Source: Actinomycetota bacterium | GTDB taxonomy: Bacteria; Actinomycetota; Nitriliruptoria; Nitriliruptorales; JAHWKO01 | Assembly: GCA_019347675.1 (NCBI GenBank) | Contig: JAHWKW010000014.1 | Span: forward strand, 1 to 54,012 | DNA: 54,012 nt | Direction: 5' to 3' | Shown here: piece after piece, positions 1-7,388 of the stretch | Layout of the letters: the number at the start of each line of letters is the position of its first letter | Numbering within the stretch: position 1 is the first letter of the stretch | Made by a program: the position numbers and the translations under genes | Notes under the pieces: generated by a model | Told to the model about the DNA's origin: nothing | What the model saw: only the letters and a program-made list of their open reading frames with translations | Database searches by the model: none

Positions 1-310
1 GGGCGTCGTGGCTGTCGGACTTGCGTGCCGAGCCACCCGAGAGAAGCCGGACGCGAGCCGAGAGCGTGGCGGGCACATCGATGACCTGTTCGCCAGCGGC
101 GATCAGCTGCTGAGCCAGCAGCCGGCCAAGTCCGTTGGCGCCCTCCACTGCCCACCGTCGCTGGGGCCATGGCTCCGCGAACCTCTGAAGCTGCAAGACC
201 TGGTGCTTGTTGGCGGCCACTCGCAGCTCGGCGAGTAGCTGTCCGGCCGTGTCGAGCGCGACGGCGGTGTGCGAGCTCTTGTGCGGATCGATCCCGATGA
301 TGACATCCAT
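1..310 (-). CDS. IS110-family DEDD transposase, N-terminal part
   Basis: Reading leftward from ATG at 310, the protein starts with residues MDVIIGIDPHKSSHTAVALD, the hallmark RuvC-like start of IS110 recombinases. The four acidic residues of the DEDD site are visible: Asp8 in GIDPHK, Glu56 in AVEGANGLG, and Asp99 and Asp102 in KSDSHDA. The frame is open to the window edge, so about 103 residues are present and the C-terminal Tnp_IS20 domain with the catalytic serine is missing. A GGAGG-like sequence (CAGGAGG on the minus strand, near 321-327) lies about 10 nt before the ATG. Family biology: this enzyme excises and inserts the element using a structured RNA guide. The visible frame has no stop codon, so the copy may be intact. 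Confidence 0.92.
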   Translation of the reverse strand, partial: MDVIIGIDPHKSSHTAVALDTAGQLLAELRVAANKHQVLQLQRFAEPWPQRRWAVEGANGLGRLLAQQLIAAGEQVIDVPATLSARVRLLSGGSARKSDSHDA

Positions 311-540
311 GCTGTGCTGGCCTCCTGTCGGTGACGTGCAGGGAGCCGCTACGGACAGTCCTGATGTGAGCGTGCACATCCCTCTGTTGAGTCACGCGGC
401 GGCGGCCTCGACGGGCGCACCTCGTTCTCAAGTCAGCCCGAGGGCGACAGGGGATTACAGAGCGTTCCCGCCGAGGCCAACGACGCTACGGAAGGCCAAC
501 CGTCTCGTCGCCTGCCCCCCAGTCTCCATCAGGGGATTTC
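311..540 (-). ncRNA. Candidate bridge-RNA region of the IS110 element
   Basis: This is the non-coding sequence directly upstream of an IS110-group transposase, the position from which IS110 bridge RNAs are transcribed. On the minus strand it contains a hairpin-forming pair (AGCGT/ACGCT, plus-strand 461-465 and 483-487) enclosing a 17-nt internal loop, and two copies of an ATCCCCTG motif (around 444-456 and 529-537). No long open frame with normal codon use covers it. Position and structure fit a bridge RNA, but the exact ends and the target and donor guide loops cannot be assigned by eye. Confidence 0.35.
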
Positions 541-840
541 GCGCGCACGGTCGCGCCTATGGCAACCCCCGCGTCGCTCCACAATGCGGTAGTTCGCGCA
601 ATCCCACAAACGGGGGCCGTGTCGGCACATTGCCCGTAGGCCCGCAGTCCGCCGTACGCGGAAGCCGGAGAAGTCGTGATGACCGCCGAGACGTTGCGCC
701 CGTTGGTGCGCAATGTTGAGGTCGAGACGCGGGTCGGCGAGGGGTGTCGACGACCGACGGTCGCCAGCGGTTGAGGAACTCGAACGACCGGGTCGCGTTC
801 GCCGCGGCTACGGTGCCAGGATGCCGCGCGGAGGGACGTG
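541..840. other. Gene-free stretch between the IS110 end and the first chromosomal gene
   Basis: No convincing gene was found. A short open frame (679-774, 31 codons) starts with ATG after a GGAG at 667-670 and has plausible codon use, but it ends quickly and is not recognisable; it could be the truncated start of a gene disrupted by the IS. A near-perfect inverted repeat lies at 691-716. A possible -10 hexamer TACGGT (809-814) precedes the gene starting at 841. Confidence 0.5.
691..716. repeat. Imperfect palindrome with 9-bp arms
   Basis: The arms ACGTTGCGC (691-699) and GCGCAATGT (708-716) pair over nine positions with a single G-T wobble around an 8-nt loop. It may be an operator or a transcription-terminating hairpin; there is no following T tract. 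Confidence 0.4.
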
Positions 841-1040: not shown

Positions 1041-1985
1041 TCACACCGAAGGCGTGACCGCGGCCAGGCGCCCAGCCAACGTCAGCGCGTAGCTCCGTCC
1101 CCGCTCACCGTCCTCGAGGCGTCTCAGCCACGCCGGGGGGATGGCCTGCAGGCCGCCGGCGGCGCCGAGCACCGCCCCCGCCATCGCGGCGATCGTGTCG
1201 GCGTCACCACCCAGGCCCAGCGCCAGTTCGACCCCGTCTCGCAACCCGTCCGCGGTGGCCGCAGCCCACAGCGCTGCGGGAACCGAGCGTTGGGCGGTCA
1301 CGGTGTTGCCCAGCCGCTTGGCGACGTCGGCGAACTCCAGGTCGTCGTCGGCTGACCAGCCGTCGACCAGTTCAGCGGCCGCCTCCACGCCGGTTCGTAG
1401 CTCGTCGCTGGATGCCACCCCGGCCAGCTCCGCCAGCTCCGCGCCCCCGAAGCGGCCCCGGCCGGCGGCCAACCCCACCGCGCGTGCCTGCACGACCGCC
1501 CCATCGATGCCCAGCGTATGGACGTGGGTCACCCCCGCCTGGCGGCGGGCCACCGCTTCGAGGGTGTCGGGGTGGTCGGCCCACAGCACGCCGACCGGCG
1601 CGACGCGCATCGCGGCGCCGTTGCCGAACGAGCCGCTGGGGAAGATCGCGGTCGCGGCGTCCTCGACGGAAGTCCCCTTCCGCCACTCCTGGATGATCCC
1701 GTGCATGCCTGCTCCGTACCCACGCCACGGCTGGTAGTGGGCGAGGAAGGTCGCGGCCAGCCGTTCGGCATCGACGTGGGGGGCGTCGCACAGGTGCTCG
1801 GCCAGAGCCAACGTGAGCTGGGTGTCGTCGGTGTAGACCAGCTCCGCGTCGTCCTCCGAGCGTTGCAGGCGGTCACGCGATGCCCGGTCAGGCGCCGGTC
1901 GGCTGCCCTCCCACCGCGCCCCCAGGGCGTCACCGGCGAACGTGCCCAGCAGCGCGCCGGCGGCGATCTCCTCGCGGGTCGGCAC
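1041..1985 (-). CDS. ADP-ribosylglycohydrolase family protein
   Basis: A 314-residue protein starting with GTG at 1985. ADP-ribosylglycohydrolase (ARH/DraG) signatures are complete: GDALGARWEG near residue 18, the metal-binding YTDDTQ near 51-56, GNGAAMRVAPVG in the middle and LGGDADTIAAMAG near the C-terminus, which coordinates the second metal. The family removes ADP-ribose from proteins or hydrolyses small ADP-ribosyl and ribosyl compounds. The start lies one base after the stop of the upstream sugar-permease gene, so it is almost certainly the last gene of that ABC operon. This suggests a role in processing the imported substrate rather than in protein de-ADP-ribosylation; that is inference from context. 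Confidence 0.9.
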   Translation of the reverse strand: MPTREEIAAGALLGTFAGDALGARWEGSRPAPDRASRDRLQRSEDDAELVYTDDTQLTLALAEHLCDAPHVDAERLAATFLAHYQPWRGYGAGMHGIIQEWRKGTSVEDAATAIFPSGSFGNGAAMRVAPVGVLWADHPDTLEAVARRQAGVTHVHTLGIDGAVVQARAVGLAAGRGRFGGAELAELAGVASSDELRTGVEAAAELVDGWSADDDLEFADVAKRLGNTVTAQRSVPAALWAAATADGLRDGVELALGLGGDADTIAAMAGAVLGAAGGLQAIPPAWLRRLEDGERGRSYALTLAGRLAAVTPSV

Positions 1986-1986
1986 G

Positions 1987-2883
1987 TCAGCCCTTCACCG
2001 CGCCCATCGTGAAGCCCGCGATGAAGCGCTCGAGGAACAGGTTGAACACGAACGCGATCGGGACGGCGACCAGGACCGCTGCGGCTTGCAGCGATTGCCA
2101 GAAGAACACGTCGCCGCGGACGAGCGCGGTGGGGACGCCAACGCTGATCGTCTTCTCCGCGGTCGGCGACACGAACGCCAGAGCGTAGATGAACTCGTGG
2201 GCGGTGAGGGTGAACGCGAACACCACCACGGCGATGATCCCGGGGAACGCCAAGGGGATCACCGTCCGGACGAACGCCCCGACGCGGCTGTAGCCGTCCA
2301 CCATCGCCTGTTCCTCGACGTCACGTGGGATGGACTTCAAGAACCCGATCAGCAGCCACACCGAGACGGGGATCGTGATGGTTGGGTACACCACGACCAG
2401 CGACCAGGTCGAGTCCTGCAGCCCGAGTTCCGCGACCACGCGGGTGAGCGAGATGAACAGCAGCGTGGGGGGGATCAGGTAGACGAAGAAGATCGCGATC
2501 CCCAGCGGCCCGGCCCACGGCATGTCGAGCCGGGCGAGGCTGTAGGCCGCGGGCAGGCTGACCGCGAGGGTGATCAGCACGACCAGGAGCCCCACCCACA
2601 CGGTGTTCCACACGAACGTGTCGAAGGCGGTCCGCGAGAACAGGTAGCTCACGTGCTCCAGCGTGGGTGGGTCGTTGAAGACGAACGGGTTGTTGGCCTT
2701 GCGGTACAGATCGCGGTCCTGCTTGAACATCGTCACCAGGCTCCACAGAAAGGGGCCCGCGGCCAGCAACGCTGCCAGCACCGCCGTCACGTACAGCCCG
2801 GTACGTCCCAGCCTTCCGCGTCGACCCGCGCGCCGGCGGGCGCGCTCGACCTGGCGAGGGTCTCGGATGTCGAGGGTGGCCAT
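1987..2883 (-). CDS. Carbohydrate ABC transporter permease, MalG type
   Basis: A 298-residue inner-membrane protein of the MalG/UgpE family (binding-protein-dependent transport, CUT1 class). A first hydrophobic segment follows a basic N-terminus rich in Arg, several more follow, and the EAA loop is visible as EEQAMVDGYSRVGAFVRTVI, where the coupling helix meets the ATPase. ATG at 2883 is chosen because GGAGG lies 7 nt upstream; a GTG at 2886 is also possible. The start overlaps the stop of the partner permease (TGATG), showing translational coupling. With the MalF-type partner it forms the channel of the sugar importer encoded at 3822-6284. Confidence 0.92.
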   Translation of the reverse strand: MATLDIRDPRQVERARRRAGRRGRLGRTGLYVTAVLAALLAAGPFLWSLVTMFKQDRDLYRKANNPFVFNDPPTLEHVSYLFSRTAFDTFVWNTVWVGLLVVLITLAVSLPAAYSLARLDMPWAGPLGIAIFFVYLIPPTLLFISLTRVVAELGLQDSTWSLVVVYPTITIPVSVWLLIGFLKSIPRDVEEQAMVDGYSRVGAFVRTVIPLAFPGIIAVVVFAFTLTAHEFIYALAFVSPTAEKTISVGVPTALVRGDVFFWQSLQAAAVLVAVPIAFVFNLFLERFIAGFTMGAVKG

Positions 2884-3812
2884 CACATGACCTCCATGCG
2901 GCGCACCGCCCGCAGGATCGCGATCGCCGACGCCAGCAGGAGCGGGAACAGAAACAGGGCGACCGCGGCTCCCTGGGCCAGGTCACCACCTTCGACGCCC
3001 TTGCGGAAAGCCCAGCTGGCCAGCACCTCGGTGGCGTGGGTGGGACCGCCACGGGTCAGGACGAACACCACCGCCATGTCCGTGAACGTCAGGATGGCCC
3101 CGAACAGTGCTGCGACAGCGATGATGGGGAGGGTCAGTGGGAGCGTCACCTCCCACAGCTTGCGCCAGAAGCCGGCGCCGTCGATGGCCGCCGCGTCGTT
3201 GATCTCGTCGGGGATCGCCACCAGGCCCGCCATGATGATCACCGCAGCCAACGGCACGATCCGCCAGGTGTGCACGGCGATGACCGAGGCCATGGCGAGG
3301 TTCGGCTTGCCGAGCCAGAACGTGTTCGACTCGATCGCGCCGGCCCAGCGCAGCACCCAGTCGATCGGGCTGAACACCGAATCGAGCATCCACAGCCACG
3401 CGATCGCCGCCAGCGACACCGGCGTGGTCCACGGCAGCAGCACCAGGAACCGCACGAACCACTTCCCGTGGAAGTCGGCCACCAGGATCATCGCCAGCGC
3501 CTTGGCGAGGACCACCACCAGCGCCATCGACACCGACGTGAAGATCAGCGTGTTCTTCAGCGACCGCCAGAACACCTGGTCGCCGACCATGGCCCGGTAG
3601 TTGTCCCACCCCACCCAGTCGAAGCTGGGATCACCGACGGTGACGTCGCTGAAGCTGAACCCGATCGCGAGGAGGAACGGGATCGCGACCAGAGCGATGA
3701 TGTAGACCACCGCTGGGAGGAGGAACAGCGGTCCCAGGACGTCGTCGCGGTCGGCGATCGAGCGTCGGGCACGTGCGTGTCCCGCCGCGCGCTCCCAGGT
3801 CGCCTCGACCAT
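2883..3812 (-). CDS. Carbohydrate ABC transporter permease, MalF type
   Basis: A 309-residue membrane protein of the MalF/UgpA family. After a basic cytoplasmic N-terminus the hydrophobic helix around LFLLPAVVYIIALVAIPFLL is typical of the first transmembrane segment. The C-terminal half carries the EAA-type coupling sequence INDAAAIDGAGFWRKLWEVT. ATG 3812 lies 9 nt after the ATPase stop. The stop overlaps the MalG-type start. The protein is short for MalF itself but normal for the UgpA/LacF type, which lacks the large periplasmic loop. Its partner and binding protein are adjacent in the same operon. Confidence 0.92.
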   Translation of the reverse strand: MVEATWERAAGHARARRSIADRDDVLGPLFLLPAVVYIIALVAIPFLLAIGFSFSDVTVGDPSFDWVGWDNYRAMVGDQVFWRSLKNTLIFTSVSMALVVVLAKALAMILVADFHGKWFVRFLVLLPWTTPVSLAAIAWLWMLDSVFSPIDWVLRWAGAIESNTFWLGKPNLAMASVIAVHTWRIVPLAAVIIMAGLVAIPDEINDAAAIDGAGFWRKLWEVTLPLTLPIIAVAALFGAILTFTDMAVVFVLTRGGPTHATEVLASWAFRKGVEGGDLAQGAAVALFLFPLLLASAIAILRAVRRMEVM

Positions 3813-3821
3813 GCGGTGGCG

Positions 3822-4868
3822 TCAGGCGCGGACGGGGCGCGGCTGGGCGCGCTGGCCGCTGTCGCGGTCGAAGAACCTGAGGTCGCGCTCGTGGACCGCG
3901 AACTGGTAGGTCTGTCCGGCGTGGATCGTGGTGGTGACGGTGGCGGGCAGCCGGGCGATCACCCGGGTCTCCTCCCCGATCCCGGTCACGGTGCCGTACA
4001 GGTGCCGGTCGCCGCTGAGGTGTTCGATGCGGTGAACGTGAAACGGCATGGTGACCCGGCTGCCGTCGCCGGAGACGGCGTCGTTGGGCAGGAAGGTCTC
4101 GGGGCGGAACCCCAGCAGGTGGTCGTCGCGGGACACCAGGTTCATCGGCGGCGACCCCAGGAACGTCGCGACGAACGTGTCGGCCGGGTCGTCGTACACC
4201 GCGGTGGGCGGGCCCACCTGGCACAGCTTCCCCTCGTACATCACCGCGATGCGGTCGCCGAGCCCCATCGCCTCGACCTGATCGTGGGTGACGTAGATCG
4301 TGGTCGTCCCGATGCGAGCCTGGAACTGCTTGAGCTCGTCACGGGCAACGGCACGGAGCTTGGCGTCGAGGTTGGACAGCGGCTCGTCCAACAGGAAGAC
4401 GCTCGGCTCGCGGACCAGCGCCCGCGCGAGGGCCACCCGCTGCCGCTCGCCACCGGACAGGTGACGCGGCCGACGGTCGAGGAGGTGGGCGATGCCGAGC
4501 AGTTCCGCGGCCCACTCGGCCTTCCGGCGCCGCTCCCTGCTGTTGAGCTTCTCGGCTTTGAGCGGGAAGGTGATGTTGTCACGGACGGTCTTGTGGGGAT
4601 ACAGGGCGTAGCTCTGGAACACCATCGCGATCTGTCGGGCGCGGGGCGGAAGCCCGTTGACCACGTTCCCGCCGATCAGGACCTCACCTCGCGTCGGCTG
4701 CTCGAGGCCCGCGATCGTGCGCAGCAGCGTGGTCTTGCCGCAGCCGGACGGTCCGAGCAGGACGAGGTACTCGCCCTCGTCGGTGCGGATGTTCACCCCG
4801 TCGACGGCATGGACGTCACCGCCGTGGTAGTGCTTCTTGAGCTCCCGGACCTCGACGACGACTGCCAT
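3822..4868 (-). CDS. Sugar ABC transporter ATP-binding protein, MalK/UgpC type
   Basis: A 348-residue cytoplasmic ATPase. Visible motifs in order: Walker A GPSGCGKTT (about residues 38-46), Q-loop MVFQSYALYPH, signature LSGGERQRVALARAL, Walker B VFLLDEPLSNLDA, and the H-loop TIYVTHDQVEAMGLGD. The last third is a TOBE-type regulatory domain (LLGFRPETF), as in MalK. It should energise the two permeases encoded immediately downstream. ATG 4868 is 6 nt from the stop of the binding-protein gene with a weak ribosome site (GCGGAT), so expression probably depends on read-through translation from the upstream gene. Confidence 0.95.
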   Translation of the reverse strand: MAVVVEVRELKKHYHGGDVHAVDGVNIRTDEGEYLVLLGPSGCGKTTLLRTIAGLEQPTRGEVLIGGNVVNGLPPRARQIAMVFQSYALYPHKTVRDNITFPLKAEKLNSRERRRKAEWAAELLGIAHLLDRRPRHLSGGERQRVALARALVREPSVFLLDEPLSNLDAKLRAVARDELKQFQARIGTTTIYVTHDQVEAMGLGDRIAVMYEGKLCQVGPPTAVYDDPADTFVATFLGSPPMNLVSRDDHLLGFRPETFLPNDAVSGDGSRVTMPFHVHRIEHLSGDRHLYGTVTGIGEETRVIARLPATVTTTIHAGQTYQFAVHERDLRFFDRDSGQRAQPRPVRA

Positions 4869-4874
4869 ATCCGC

Positions 4875-6284
4875 TCAGGCGCCTCCGCCGCCGACCAGAC
4901 CTCGCTGACGGTACTTGTCGAAGATCGGCGTGATCTGCGACTCCGCGTCGGCGACGGCGTCCGCAGGCGACAGGTCGCCGCGGGCGGCCTTGGCCATCAT
5001 GTTCGGCAGGATGTACGTGCCGAACACCTCACCGATCGCGGTGTTGGACGGGCCGGGATGACCGATGTTCGTGGTCCAGTCCACCGCGTCCTTGAGGACC
5101 GCCAGCTTGTCGGTCGGTTGCGCCCCGAACGGGTCGATGCTGAGCCACTCGTCGAGCTGCGGGACACGCTCGAGGAACGCCGGGAAGTCGTACAGCTTCG
5201 ACTCGAAGGTGGCCCTGTGGAAGTTGGCGGTGTAGTGCAGCAGGAACTCCTTGGCGGCGTCCACGTTCTGCGCGTGCGACGGAACGATCCAGTTGTACAT
5301 CACGTGCTGCGCGGCGAGCTGTGCTGCCGGCCCCTGCAGGGCGGGGACGAAGAACACGTCGCGGGCCACCTCGGGGTTGGCGTCCTGGGCGGTGCGCCAC
5401 GCCGAGATCGAGTTGAGGATGTACGACATCTCCCCGGCGATCAGCCCCTGATTGTTCGACGCGGCGTTCCACGCGAAGACCTCGTCGGTCATGGCCTGCT
5501 CGTACAGGTTGCGCATGAACTCCACGGCGGCGATCGTCTCGTCGGAGTTGATCACCACGTTCTCGTTCTCGTCCTGCACCGAACCGCCGAACGACCACAG
5601 CAGCGCCCGGGCCGCCATGTTCGAGTCGATCTCCTGCGACATCCCGATGCCGAGCTGCACGTTGAGCCTGTTCTTGATCTCCGCCCCGCCCTCACGCAGC
5701 TCGTCCCACGTCGTCGGCCCGTCGGCCAGGCCCACCTGCTCCCACAAGCTCCTGCGGTAGTCACCGGGGTCGGGCACCCACCCGGGGCTGTAGGCGTAGA
5801 ACTTCTCGGTGTTGGGGTTGAAGCTCGACTTGCGGCACAGGTCCAGCTGTTCGCCGAACCGGTTCACCGCCTCCTCGGTCACGTCGGTCAGGTCGACGAC
5901 GCTGGGTTCGAACTGCGACAGCGGGGCGATGTACTGGATCAGGTCGTGGCCCCCACCAGCGGCGATCTCCGCCGAGATCCGGGTTGGGATGTCGGCCACG
6001 TTGATGTGGTCGACGGTGACGTTGACGCCGACCTCGTTCCCCCACTCCTTGGCGAACGGATCGAACCAGTCGTCGTGCGCCGGGACGAAGTGGCTCCACA
6101 GCAGGATCCTGAGTTCTCCTGACAGCGTCGTCGTGGGCTCGGTGTACGTCTCGGTCGGCGTGTCCGTCGGAGTCTGGCTGGCTCTCTGCTCGCCGCCACC
6201 GCCGCACGCAGCCGCCAGCGTGGCAAACCCGACACCCTTCACGAAACTCCGCCGCGTGATGCTGAACCCCGGATGGCCCGCCAT
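4875..6284 (-). CDS. Extracellular solute-binding lipoprotein of the sugar ABC transporter, Tat-exported
   Basis: A 469-residue protein of the family 1 (MalE-like) binding proteins. The start is fixed by AAGGAGG 6-7 nt before ATG 6284. The N-terminus has a twin-arginine motif (TRRSFVKG, residues 10-17), a hydrophobic stretch and the lipobox LAAAC with the lipidated Cys27, followed by a Gly-rich and Thr/Pro-rich linker. It is therefore expected to be exported folded and anchored to the outer face of the membrane. It is the first gene of a five-gene operon (binding protein, ATPase, two permeases, ADP-ribosylglycohydrolase). The transported sugar cannot be told from the sequence; the downstream hydrolase hints at a ribosyl-containing substrate. 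An inverted repeat at 6308-6326 lies just upstream. Confidence 0.92.
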   Translation of the reverse strand: MAGHPGFSITRRSFVKGVGFATLAAACGGGGEQRASQTPTDTPTETYTEPTTTLSGELRILLWSHFVPAHDDWFDPFAKEWGNEVGVNVTVDHINVADIPTRISAEIAAGGGHDLIQYIAPLSQFEPSVVDLTDVTEEAVNRFGEQLDLCRKSSFNPNTEKFYAYSPGWVPDPGDYRRSLWEQVGLADGPTTWDELREGGAEIKNRLNVQLGIGMSQEIDSNMAARALLWSFGGSVQDENENVVINSDETIAAVEFMRNLYEQAMTDEVFAWNAASNNQGLIAGEMSYILNSISAWRTAQDANPEVARDVFFVPALQGPAAQLAAQHVMYNWIVPSHAQNVDAAKEFLLHYTANFHRATFESKLYDFPAFLERVPQLDEWLSIDPFGAQPTDKLAVLKDAVDWTTNIGHPGPSNTAIGEVFGTYILPNMMAKAARGDLSPADAVADAESQITPIFDKYRQRGLVGGGGA

Positions 6285-6307
6285 GGCTCCTCCTTGTGGT
6301 CCCGCCT

Positions 6308-6326
6308 GCCACGCCGTCGCCGTGGC
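6308..6326. promoter_or_regulatory. Inverted repeat upstream of the sugar ABC operon
   Basis: GCCACG (6308-6313) and CGTGGC (6321-6326) form perfect 6-bp arms around CCGTCGC, 24 nt before the ATG of the binding-protein gene. The position between the divergent operon and oxidoreductase gene suits an operator for a LacI/GntR-type repressor, or a leader hairpin. No regulator gene is nearby. Confidence 0.3.
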
Positions 6327-6419
6327 GACCCGGCGGCGAGCAACGGCGCCAGTGTGTCGACAACGGTAGTCCCGTCTGACGTAGCGTGGGACGAGCGTCG
6401 CAGCGAGAGGACGGTGACG

Positions 6420-7388
6420 ATGCAGGCCGTGACGATCCAGACAACAGGTGGTCCAGACGTTTTGGGCACCGAGGAGCTCGACACACCCGCTCCCGGCCCC
6501 GACCAGGTCCGCGTCCGGATCGAGGCGGCCGGACTCAACTTCATCGACACCTACCTGCGCAGCGGCGCGTACGGCCTGGAGCTCCCGGCCATCCTGGGCG
6601 TGGAAGCCGCTGGTGTGGTCGACGCCGTCGGGGACGGCGTCGACGGCGTGCGCGAGGGCGACCGGGTGGCTTACACGGGGGTGCGCGGGGCGTACGCCGA
6701 GTACGCCGTGGTCCCCGCCGACCGGCTGGTCACCGTCCCCGACGAGATCGACCTGCGCACCGCCGCGGCCGTGATGCTGCAGGGCATGACCGCGCACTAC
6801 CTGACGCACAGCACCTACGTGGTCGACGACGGCGACACGGCGTTGGTGTTGGCCGCAGCCGGAGGGGTCGGCCACCTGCTGGTGCAGCTGGCCGCCCGGC
6901 GGGGCGCGCGCGTGATCGGGACCGTGTCGACCTAGGAGAAGGAGTCCCTGGCCCGGGATCTGGGGTGCGACCAGGTCGTGCGCTACACCGAGGTGGACCT
7001 GGTCGAGGCGGTCCAGGACCTGACCGACGGAGCCGGCGTCGACGTGGTGTACGACTCGGTCGGGCGCGACACGTTCGCCCAGAGCCTGGACTGTCTACGG
7101 CCACGCGGCTACCTGGTGCTGTTCGGCCAGTCGAGTGGGGCGGTGGAGCCGTTCGATCCGCAGGTGCTCAACGGCAAGGGGTCGCTGTTTCTCACCCGAC
7201 CGAGCCTGACCCACTACGTGGCTCGCCGTGAGGAGCTCGAGTGGCGCTCCGGCGATCTGTTCGCGTCGATGGTGGCCGGTGAGCTCCACGTGCGCGTCGA
7301 CCGCACCTTCCCGCTGGCCGAGGCGGCCGAGGCGCACCGCTACATCCAGGGCCGCAACACCAAGGGCAAGGTCCTGCTGGTGCCCTGA
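6420..7388 (+). pseudogene. NADPH:quinone oxidoreductase (zeta-crystallin type) interrupted by one in-frame TAG
   Basis: From ATG 6420 the frame reads a medium-chain dehydrogenase/reductase of the quinone oxidoreductase type, ending with TGA at 7388 (322 residues if read through, the family's usual length). The N-terminal GroES-like half, the Rossmann loop AAAGGVGHLLVQLA and the C-terminal segment [20 protein letters not shown] are intact. A TAG codon at 6933-6935 falls after VIGTVST, where relatives usually continue with a Glu or Ala before EK; downstream the same frame resumes at once with [15 protein letters not shown]. No base is gained or lost. A single G-to-T or C-to-T change from GAG or CAG would explain it. 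TAG is a normal stop elsewhere in the window. A -10 TAGCGT lies at 6382-6387. Confidence 0.85.

What the first reader, a model, noticed from the sequence alone, without database searches (positions are those of the whole stretch)
311..540. IS110 leader is a candidate bridge RNA
The sequence shows the start of an IS110 transposase with D8/E56/D99/D102, then about 230 nt of leader with a hairpin pair around a 17-nt loop and repeated ATCCCCTG motifs. IS110-group elements are known to encode a bispecific bridge RNA in this position. The visible transposase part has no stop, so the copy may be functional. This would be a programmable recombinase of a phylum-deep actinobacterium.
Basis: partly seen in the sequence, partly recalled or inferred. 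Interest (0 to 1): 0.7.

Follow-up and report, generated by a model that had tools for sequence, protein, structure and literature searches.

The report
Bridge RNA leader of IS110 element

Summary
Confirmed, with refinements. Window 1-536 (minus strand) is the left part of a single IS110-group insertion sequence cut by the contig end. Its missing right part, including the serine (Transposase_20) domain and right end, lies at the end of contig C45 of the same genome. Five identical 1418-bp copies in a genome of the same order (G010) fix the ends. The 226-nt leader holds a two-loop RNA (model match window 342-481). In 34 actinobacterial relatives 25 of 31 pairs show compensatory changes, and a model built without the window's clade still finds it (90.5 bits, E 8e-19). 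In 50 elements the four predicted guide-DNA pairings beat all 5000 re-pairings; three of four control pairings do not. Two Rhodococcus relatives with slightly different guides sit in correspondingly different alleles of one site, whose empty forms exist on other plasmids. The "repeated ATCCCCTG" is the left junction and its copy in the target-binding loop. The core dinucleotide of this clade is unresolved (TC is the only one shared by both ends); the window's own right target guide match is weak. No RNA or activity was measured. New member of a known kind.

The parts
2..310 (-). N-terminal 103 aa of the IS110 DEDD transposase (RuvC-like domain), truncated by the contig end; rest at G000:C45:6410-7117(-)
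   Evidence: PF01548 E 7.2e-11; C45 fragment PF02371 E 2.5e-22; halves fit the G010 element at 1-531 and ~558-1417 of 1418, so ~23-26 nt missing between contigs
311..536 (-). left end (LE) non-coding leader; element boundary at 536 (TCCCCTGATGG...)
   Evidence: sharp boundary shared by five identical G010 copies with different flanks; same start in window
342..481 (-). bridge RNA core (target-binding loop + donor-binding loop)
   Evidence: R1 110.3 bits (training member); R2, built without window/G010/G001, 90.5 bits, E 8.2e-19; covariation
479..512 (-). 5' hairpin GGCGACG..ACGG/CCGT..CGTCGTT preceding the target-binding loop
   Evidence: single-sequence fold; not tested for covariation
404..478 (-). 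target-binding loop: outer stem 467-478/404-415, apical stem 432-448
   Evidence: helices 1-3 of the covariation count; positions
449..459 (-). left target guide region TGTAATCCCCT (overlaps the copy of ATCCCCTG at 448-455)
   Evidence: own left junction match AATCCCCTG (9 nt), 0/49 other elements and 0/300 shuffles reach it
422..429 (-). right target guide region GAGAACGA
   Evidence: reverse complement TCGTT(CTC) vs right flank TCGTTACGG on C45; weak alone, strong family-wide (0/5000)
345..403 (-). donor-binding loop stem-loop
   Evidence: helix 4, 12 pairs, 10 with double changes
380..387 (-). left donor guide ACAGAGGG, identical to part of the right end CACACAGAGGGTTCG
   Evidence: 8/300 shuffles as good
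360..366 (-). right donor guide CATCAGG = reverse complement of CCTGATG at the left end
   Evidence: 16/300 shuffles as good
526..536 (-). left end / right donor TCCCCTGATGG; TC (535-536) is the only dinucleotide shared in register with the right end
537..548 (-). left target flank GTGCGCGCGAAA at the insertion site; right flank GTTACGG on C45

Best explanation
The feature is the left end of a single-copy IS110-group insertion sequence of about 1.42 kb in a Nitriliruptoria-related (Actinomycetota) genome. Its leader encodes a bridge RNA upstream of the transposase. Inferred mechanism, as for IS621: the excised circle (or a read-in promoter) gives the RNA; the target-binding loop pairs with the two strands of the insertion site and the donor-binding loop with the joined element ends; the DEDD/serine recombinase then exchanges strands at a short core. 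Shown here: the element and its ends, the conserved RNA structure, the four-way guide/DNA correspondence in the family, and target alleles that follow guide alleles in two relatives. Inferred: transcription, protein binding, and activity of this copy.
For: Ends from five identical copies and matching right end on C45. Both Pfam domains present, and sequence similarity to the solved IS621 and ISCro4 recombinases (E 1e-13). Structure: 91.5% of cells paired vs 35-47% when slid; 171 double changes vs 57 in shuffles. Clade-blind model finds the window at E 8e-19. Guide tests: 0/5000 for all four predicted pairings. Empty sites for two relatives: 216 nt contiguous at 100% for L148 and 99.1% for L150; guides GTGAACGTT / right CCACAC versus GTGAACATT / right CCAGAC track the target.
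Against: No transcript or binding data. The window's right target guide matches only TCGTT, no better than chance alone. One control pairing (RDG to right end) is mildly above chance (45/5000). Donor guides in the window are only moderately unusual singly. Left side reads CC/CT and right side TC when aligned with relatives, so the core is not settled. No -10 box is evident at the predicted circle junction although TTGACA is conserved in the right end. Rfam has no matching family.
Confidence: 0.93

Rival explanations
1. The leader is a structured 5' UTR that controls transposase expression (attenuator or start-codon occlusion) and not a guide RNA.
For: It lies directly upstream of the start codon and is strongly folded.
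Against: Loop sequences track each element's own flanks and ends across 50 elements, which regulation does not predict.
Confidence: 0.04
2. The copy is a dead remnant: the RNA structure is inherited but the element no longer moves. (Compatible with the best explanation of what the RNA is.)
For: Single copy; the halves are separated by a small assembly gap; target guides fit this site only in part.
Against: Both halves are open and in frame with relatives, both ends and donor guides are intact, and a close relative has five identical copies.
Confidence: 0.3
3. Left (C14) and right (C45) parts come from two different copies.
For: They are on separate contigs.
Against: Each part occurs once in the genome, they are complementary halves at contig ends in the same orientation, and both flanks fit the target consensus of the G010 copies.
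Confidence: 0.05

Closest known systems
IS621 bridge RNA-guided recombination (IS110 group; PMC11208160, PMC11208158)
   Same: RNA in the left end; 5' hairpin, target-binding loop, donor-binding loop; left guides on the 5' side matching the top strand, right guides on the 3' side as its reverse complement; DEDD + serine recombinase
   Different: Recombinase only distantly similar (C-terminal match E 1e-13); core not clearly CT; several nt (CCCTG) between the target guide's TC and the apical stem if the core is TC, where IS621 has a one-nt linker
Predicted bridge RNAs of other IS110 elements, e.g. ISAar29 (PMC11208160, Fig. 6)
   Same: Predicted bridge RNA with target and donor loops
   Different: Not compared directly: its sequence is not in the tools
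seekRNA of ISEc21 (PMC11187229)
   Same: RNA from the upstream non-coding region, bottom-strand match 5' to top-strand match
   Different: Described as a shorter RNA (74 nt; 58 nt suffices) with target matches only
IS110-family elements of Rhodococcus plasmids (L148, L150)
   Same: Same RNA model (104-105 bits) and guide grammar; core CC fixed by empty sites
   Different: Right donor abuts the core (CC|GACTTATATG); transposase about 46-48% identical to the G010 relative

Membership tests
IS110 family insertion sequence | DEDD RuvC-like domain plus Transposase_20 domain with catalytic serine | tested here: met
   PF01548 (window) and PF02371 (C45); S266 of the relative invariant and aligned with the ESG serine of IS621
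IS110 family insertion sequence | Defined ends with a short core shared by both junctions | tested here: inconclusive
   Ends defined by five copies; shared core is probably TC but no empty site of this clade was found
IS110 group (not IS1111) | Longer non-coding left end carrying the RNA | tested here: met
   LE 226 nt, RE about 152 nt; the RNA model hits the left end and nothing on C45
Bridge RNA | Conserved two-loop secondary structure | tested here: met
Bridge RNA | Loop guides complementary to target and to donor (element ends), left guides 5', right guides 3' | tested here: met
   Family-wide 0/5000 for all four pairings; in the window itself LTG clear, LDG and RDG moderate, RTG weak
Bridge RNA | All four guides include an identical core dinucleotide | tested here: inconclusive
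   Target and ends of the Rhodococcus relatives share core CC; window clade reads CC/CT on left guides and TC on the right guide and right end
Bridge RNA | Expressed RNA that binds the recombinase and directs programmable recombination | not testable with these tools
   needs RNA-seq, binding and recombination assays

The most novel reading that the evidence does not exclude
In this clade (Nitriliruptoria and Acidimicrobiia elements) the core grammar differs from IS621: the left and right junctions do not carry the same dinucleotide, and the target-binding loop continues past its left guide into a copy of the element's own left end (CCCTG in window/G010, ACCTG in G006a, with a matching base change between G006b and G015), acting as a guide for the exchanged product rather than for the substrates.
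Probability: 0.12. Interest if true: 0.5.

Novelty: new member of a known kind. Interest (0 to 1): 0.3.

Why it matters
It extends well-supported bridge RNAs to a deep actinobacterial class and supplies a family alignment, a covariance model and natural reprogramming pairs with empty sites. If the core asymmetry is real, it would bear on how guide loops handle strand exchange and on choosing recombinases with other core rules. Otherwise it is an additional, possibly usable, ortholog of a known tool.

Tried and rejected
Rfam: no family. Empty-site searches for Salsipaludibacter and for the window's own joined flanks found none; a Streptomyces search could not be centred. The six Streptomyces sp. 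I6 copies sit in a larger repeat and do not define the ends. Reading-frame restoration at the G010 sites did not discriminate core registers; no clear interrupted gene was seen. The idea that the target is a dispersed REP-like motif was rejected: pattern counts equal the reversed control. A circle-junction promoter was looked for: TTGACA is conserved in the right end, no consistent -10. A regulatory-leader-only reading was rejected because loops track flanks.

Full report
What is there. The window is contig C14, bases 1-54012, of a 3.49-Mb draft genome. Its first 310 bases encode, on the minus strand, the first 103 residues of an IS110 transposase that runs off the contig. The rest of the protein is found at the end of contig C45 (236 residues, PF02371 E 2.5e-22). 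Against the 1418-bp element of a relative (G010, 87% identical over the 103 residues) the two pieces cover positions 1-531 and about 558-1417, so roughly 23-26 nt are missing between contigs and the frames are compatible. Each piece occurs once in the genome, so one copy is the simplest reading.

Ends. G010 carries five identical copies with unrelated flanks; the shared block begins TCCCCTGATGGAGAC and ends CACACAGAGGGTTCG. The window and C45 have the same ends, at window 536 and C45:6254. The leader is 226 nt and the right non-coding end about 152 nt, the IS110-group layout (RNA on the left) rather than IS1111 (PMC11208160).

Structure. Leaders of 34 actinobacterial relatives align over about 150 nt. 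RNAalifold gives 31 pairs, 25 with compensatory changes. Counts: 91.5% of cells paired (35-47% when slid by 1-3 columns), 171 double-change cells against 57 in shuffles, none of 500 shuffles reaching any measure. A model built without window, G010 and G001 finds window 342-481 at 90.5 bits, E 8e-19 and most related leaders tested. Single-sequence folding energy is only mildly unusual (z -2.5), so the case rests on comparison.

Guides. With guide regions taken from the alignment, each was matched to its own and to other elements' ends in 50 elements. Target-loop 5' strand to left flank/left end, target-loop 3' strand (reverse complement) to right flank, donor-loop 5' strand to right end, and donor-loop 3' strand (reverse complement) to left end all beat 5000 of 5000 random re-pairings. 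Of the four control pairings three do not; donor-loop 3' to right end is slightly above chance (45/5000). This is the bridge-RNA grammar of IS621. Relatedness among elements makes the permutation figures approximate, but it would affect controls too. For the window itself the left target guide is clear (AATCCCCTG, 0/300 shuffles), the donor guides moderate (8/300 and 16/300), the right target guide weak (TCGTT at the junction; the best-scoring match in the right part was a chance one elsewhere).

Natural reprogramming. Two Rhodococcus plasmid relatives (L148, L150) interrupt the same place in IS481 transposase genes. One has left junction GTGAACGTT and guide GTGAACGTT, the other GTGAACATT and GTGAACATT; the right sides are CCACAC and CCAGAC with matching right guides. 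The uninterrupted site of L148 is present, 100% over 216 nt with one CC core, on three other plasmids, and that of L150 at 99.1% on two. L116 and L133 show a similar single-base change on the left side.

Open point: the core. In the Rhodococcus relatives the core is CC and directly precedes the right donor. Aligned the same way, the window clade would have CC or CT on the left (left end, left target guide, right donor guide) but TC on the right (right end, right target guide). The only dinucleotide shared in register by both ends in the five G010 copies and the window is TC, which leaves extra C residues between core and the conserved CTGATGG. No empty site of this clade was found, so I leave it open.

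Mechanism. By homology with IS621 the recombinase would use the RNA to bring target and circularised element together and exchange strands at the core. RNA production, protein binding and activity are inferred, not shown. The relative with five identical copies shows that close kin moved recently.

Known or new. Bridge RNAs were predicted for 85.7% of IS110-group elements in ISfinder, the vast majority in the left end (PMC11208160), so this is a new member. A literature search found no paper in the held library describing bridge RNAs of this class, which is weak evidence given the library's limits.

Noticed in passing
window 582-786; G000:C57:3177-3378: A 205-bp stretch next to the insertion is 84% identical to a place on contig C57; no function assigned.
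   Followed up: partly
G000:C4:173144-173480 (L019) and C27:3466-3657 (L021): Decayed IS110 fragments of the same broad kind; C4 keeps a recognisable bridge-RNA-like leader (42 bits, E 5e-6).
   Followed up: partly
G000:C40:10237-11274 and C18:13402-13873: Other IS110-family transposases of more distant kind in the same genome.
   Followed up: no
window 537-548 with C45 right flank: The insertion site is flanked by an imperfect palindrome (GTGCGCGCGAA ... TTCGCGCAC about 30 bp into the right flank); some G010 sites look similar, but GC-rich chance was not excluded.
   Followed up: no
L085, L086, L087, L093, L095, L103, L104, L130 (left-end junctions and tails): Left ends read about GTGCCTG and right ends about TTCG or TCG; no dinucleotide is shared in register, like the window clade.
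   Followed up: partly
window 1041-6875: ADP-ribosylglycohydrolase-like ORF and an ABC sugar transporter operon (two permeases, ATPase, solute-binding protein) lie beside the element, judged only by eye from the translations.
   Followed up: no
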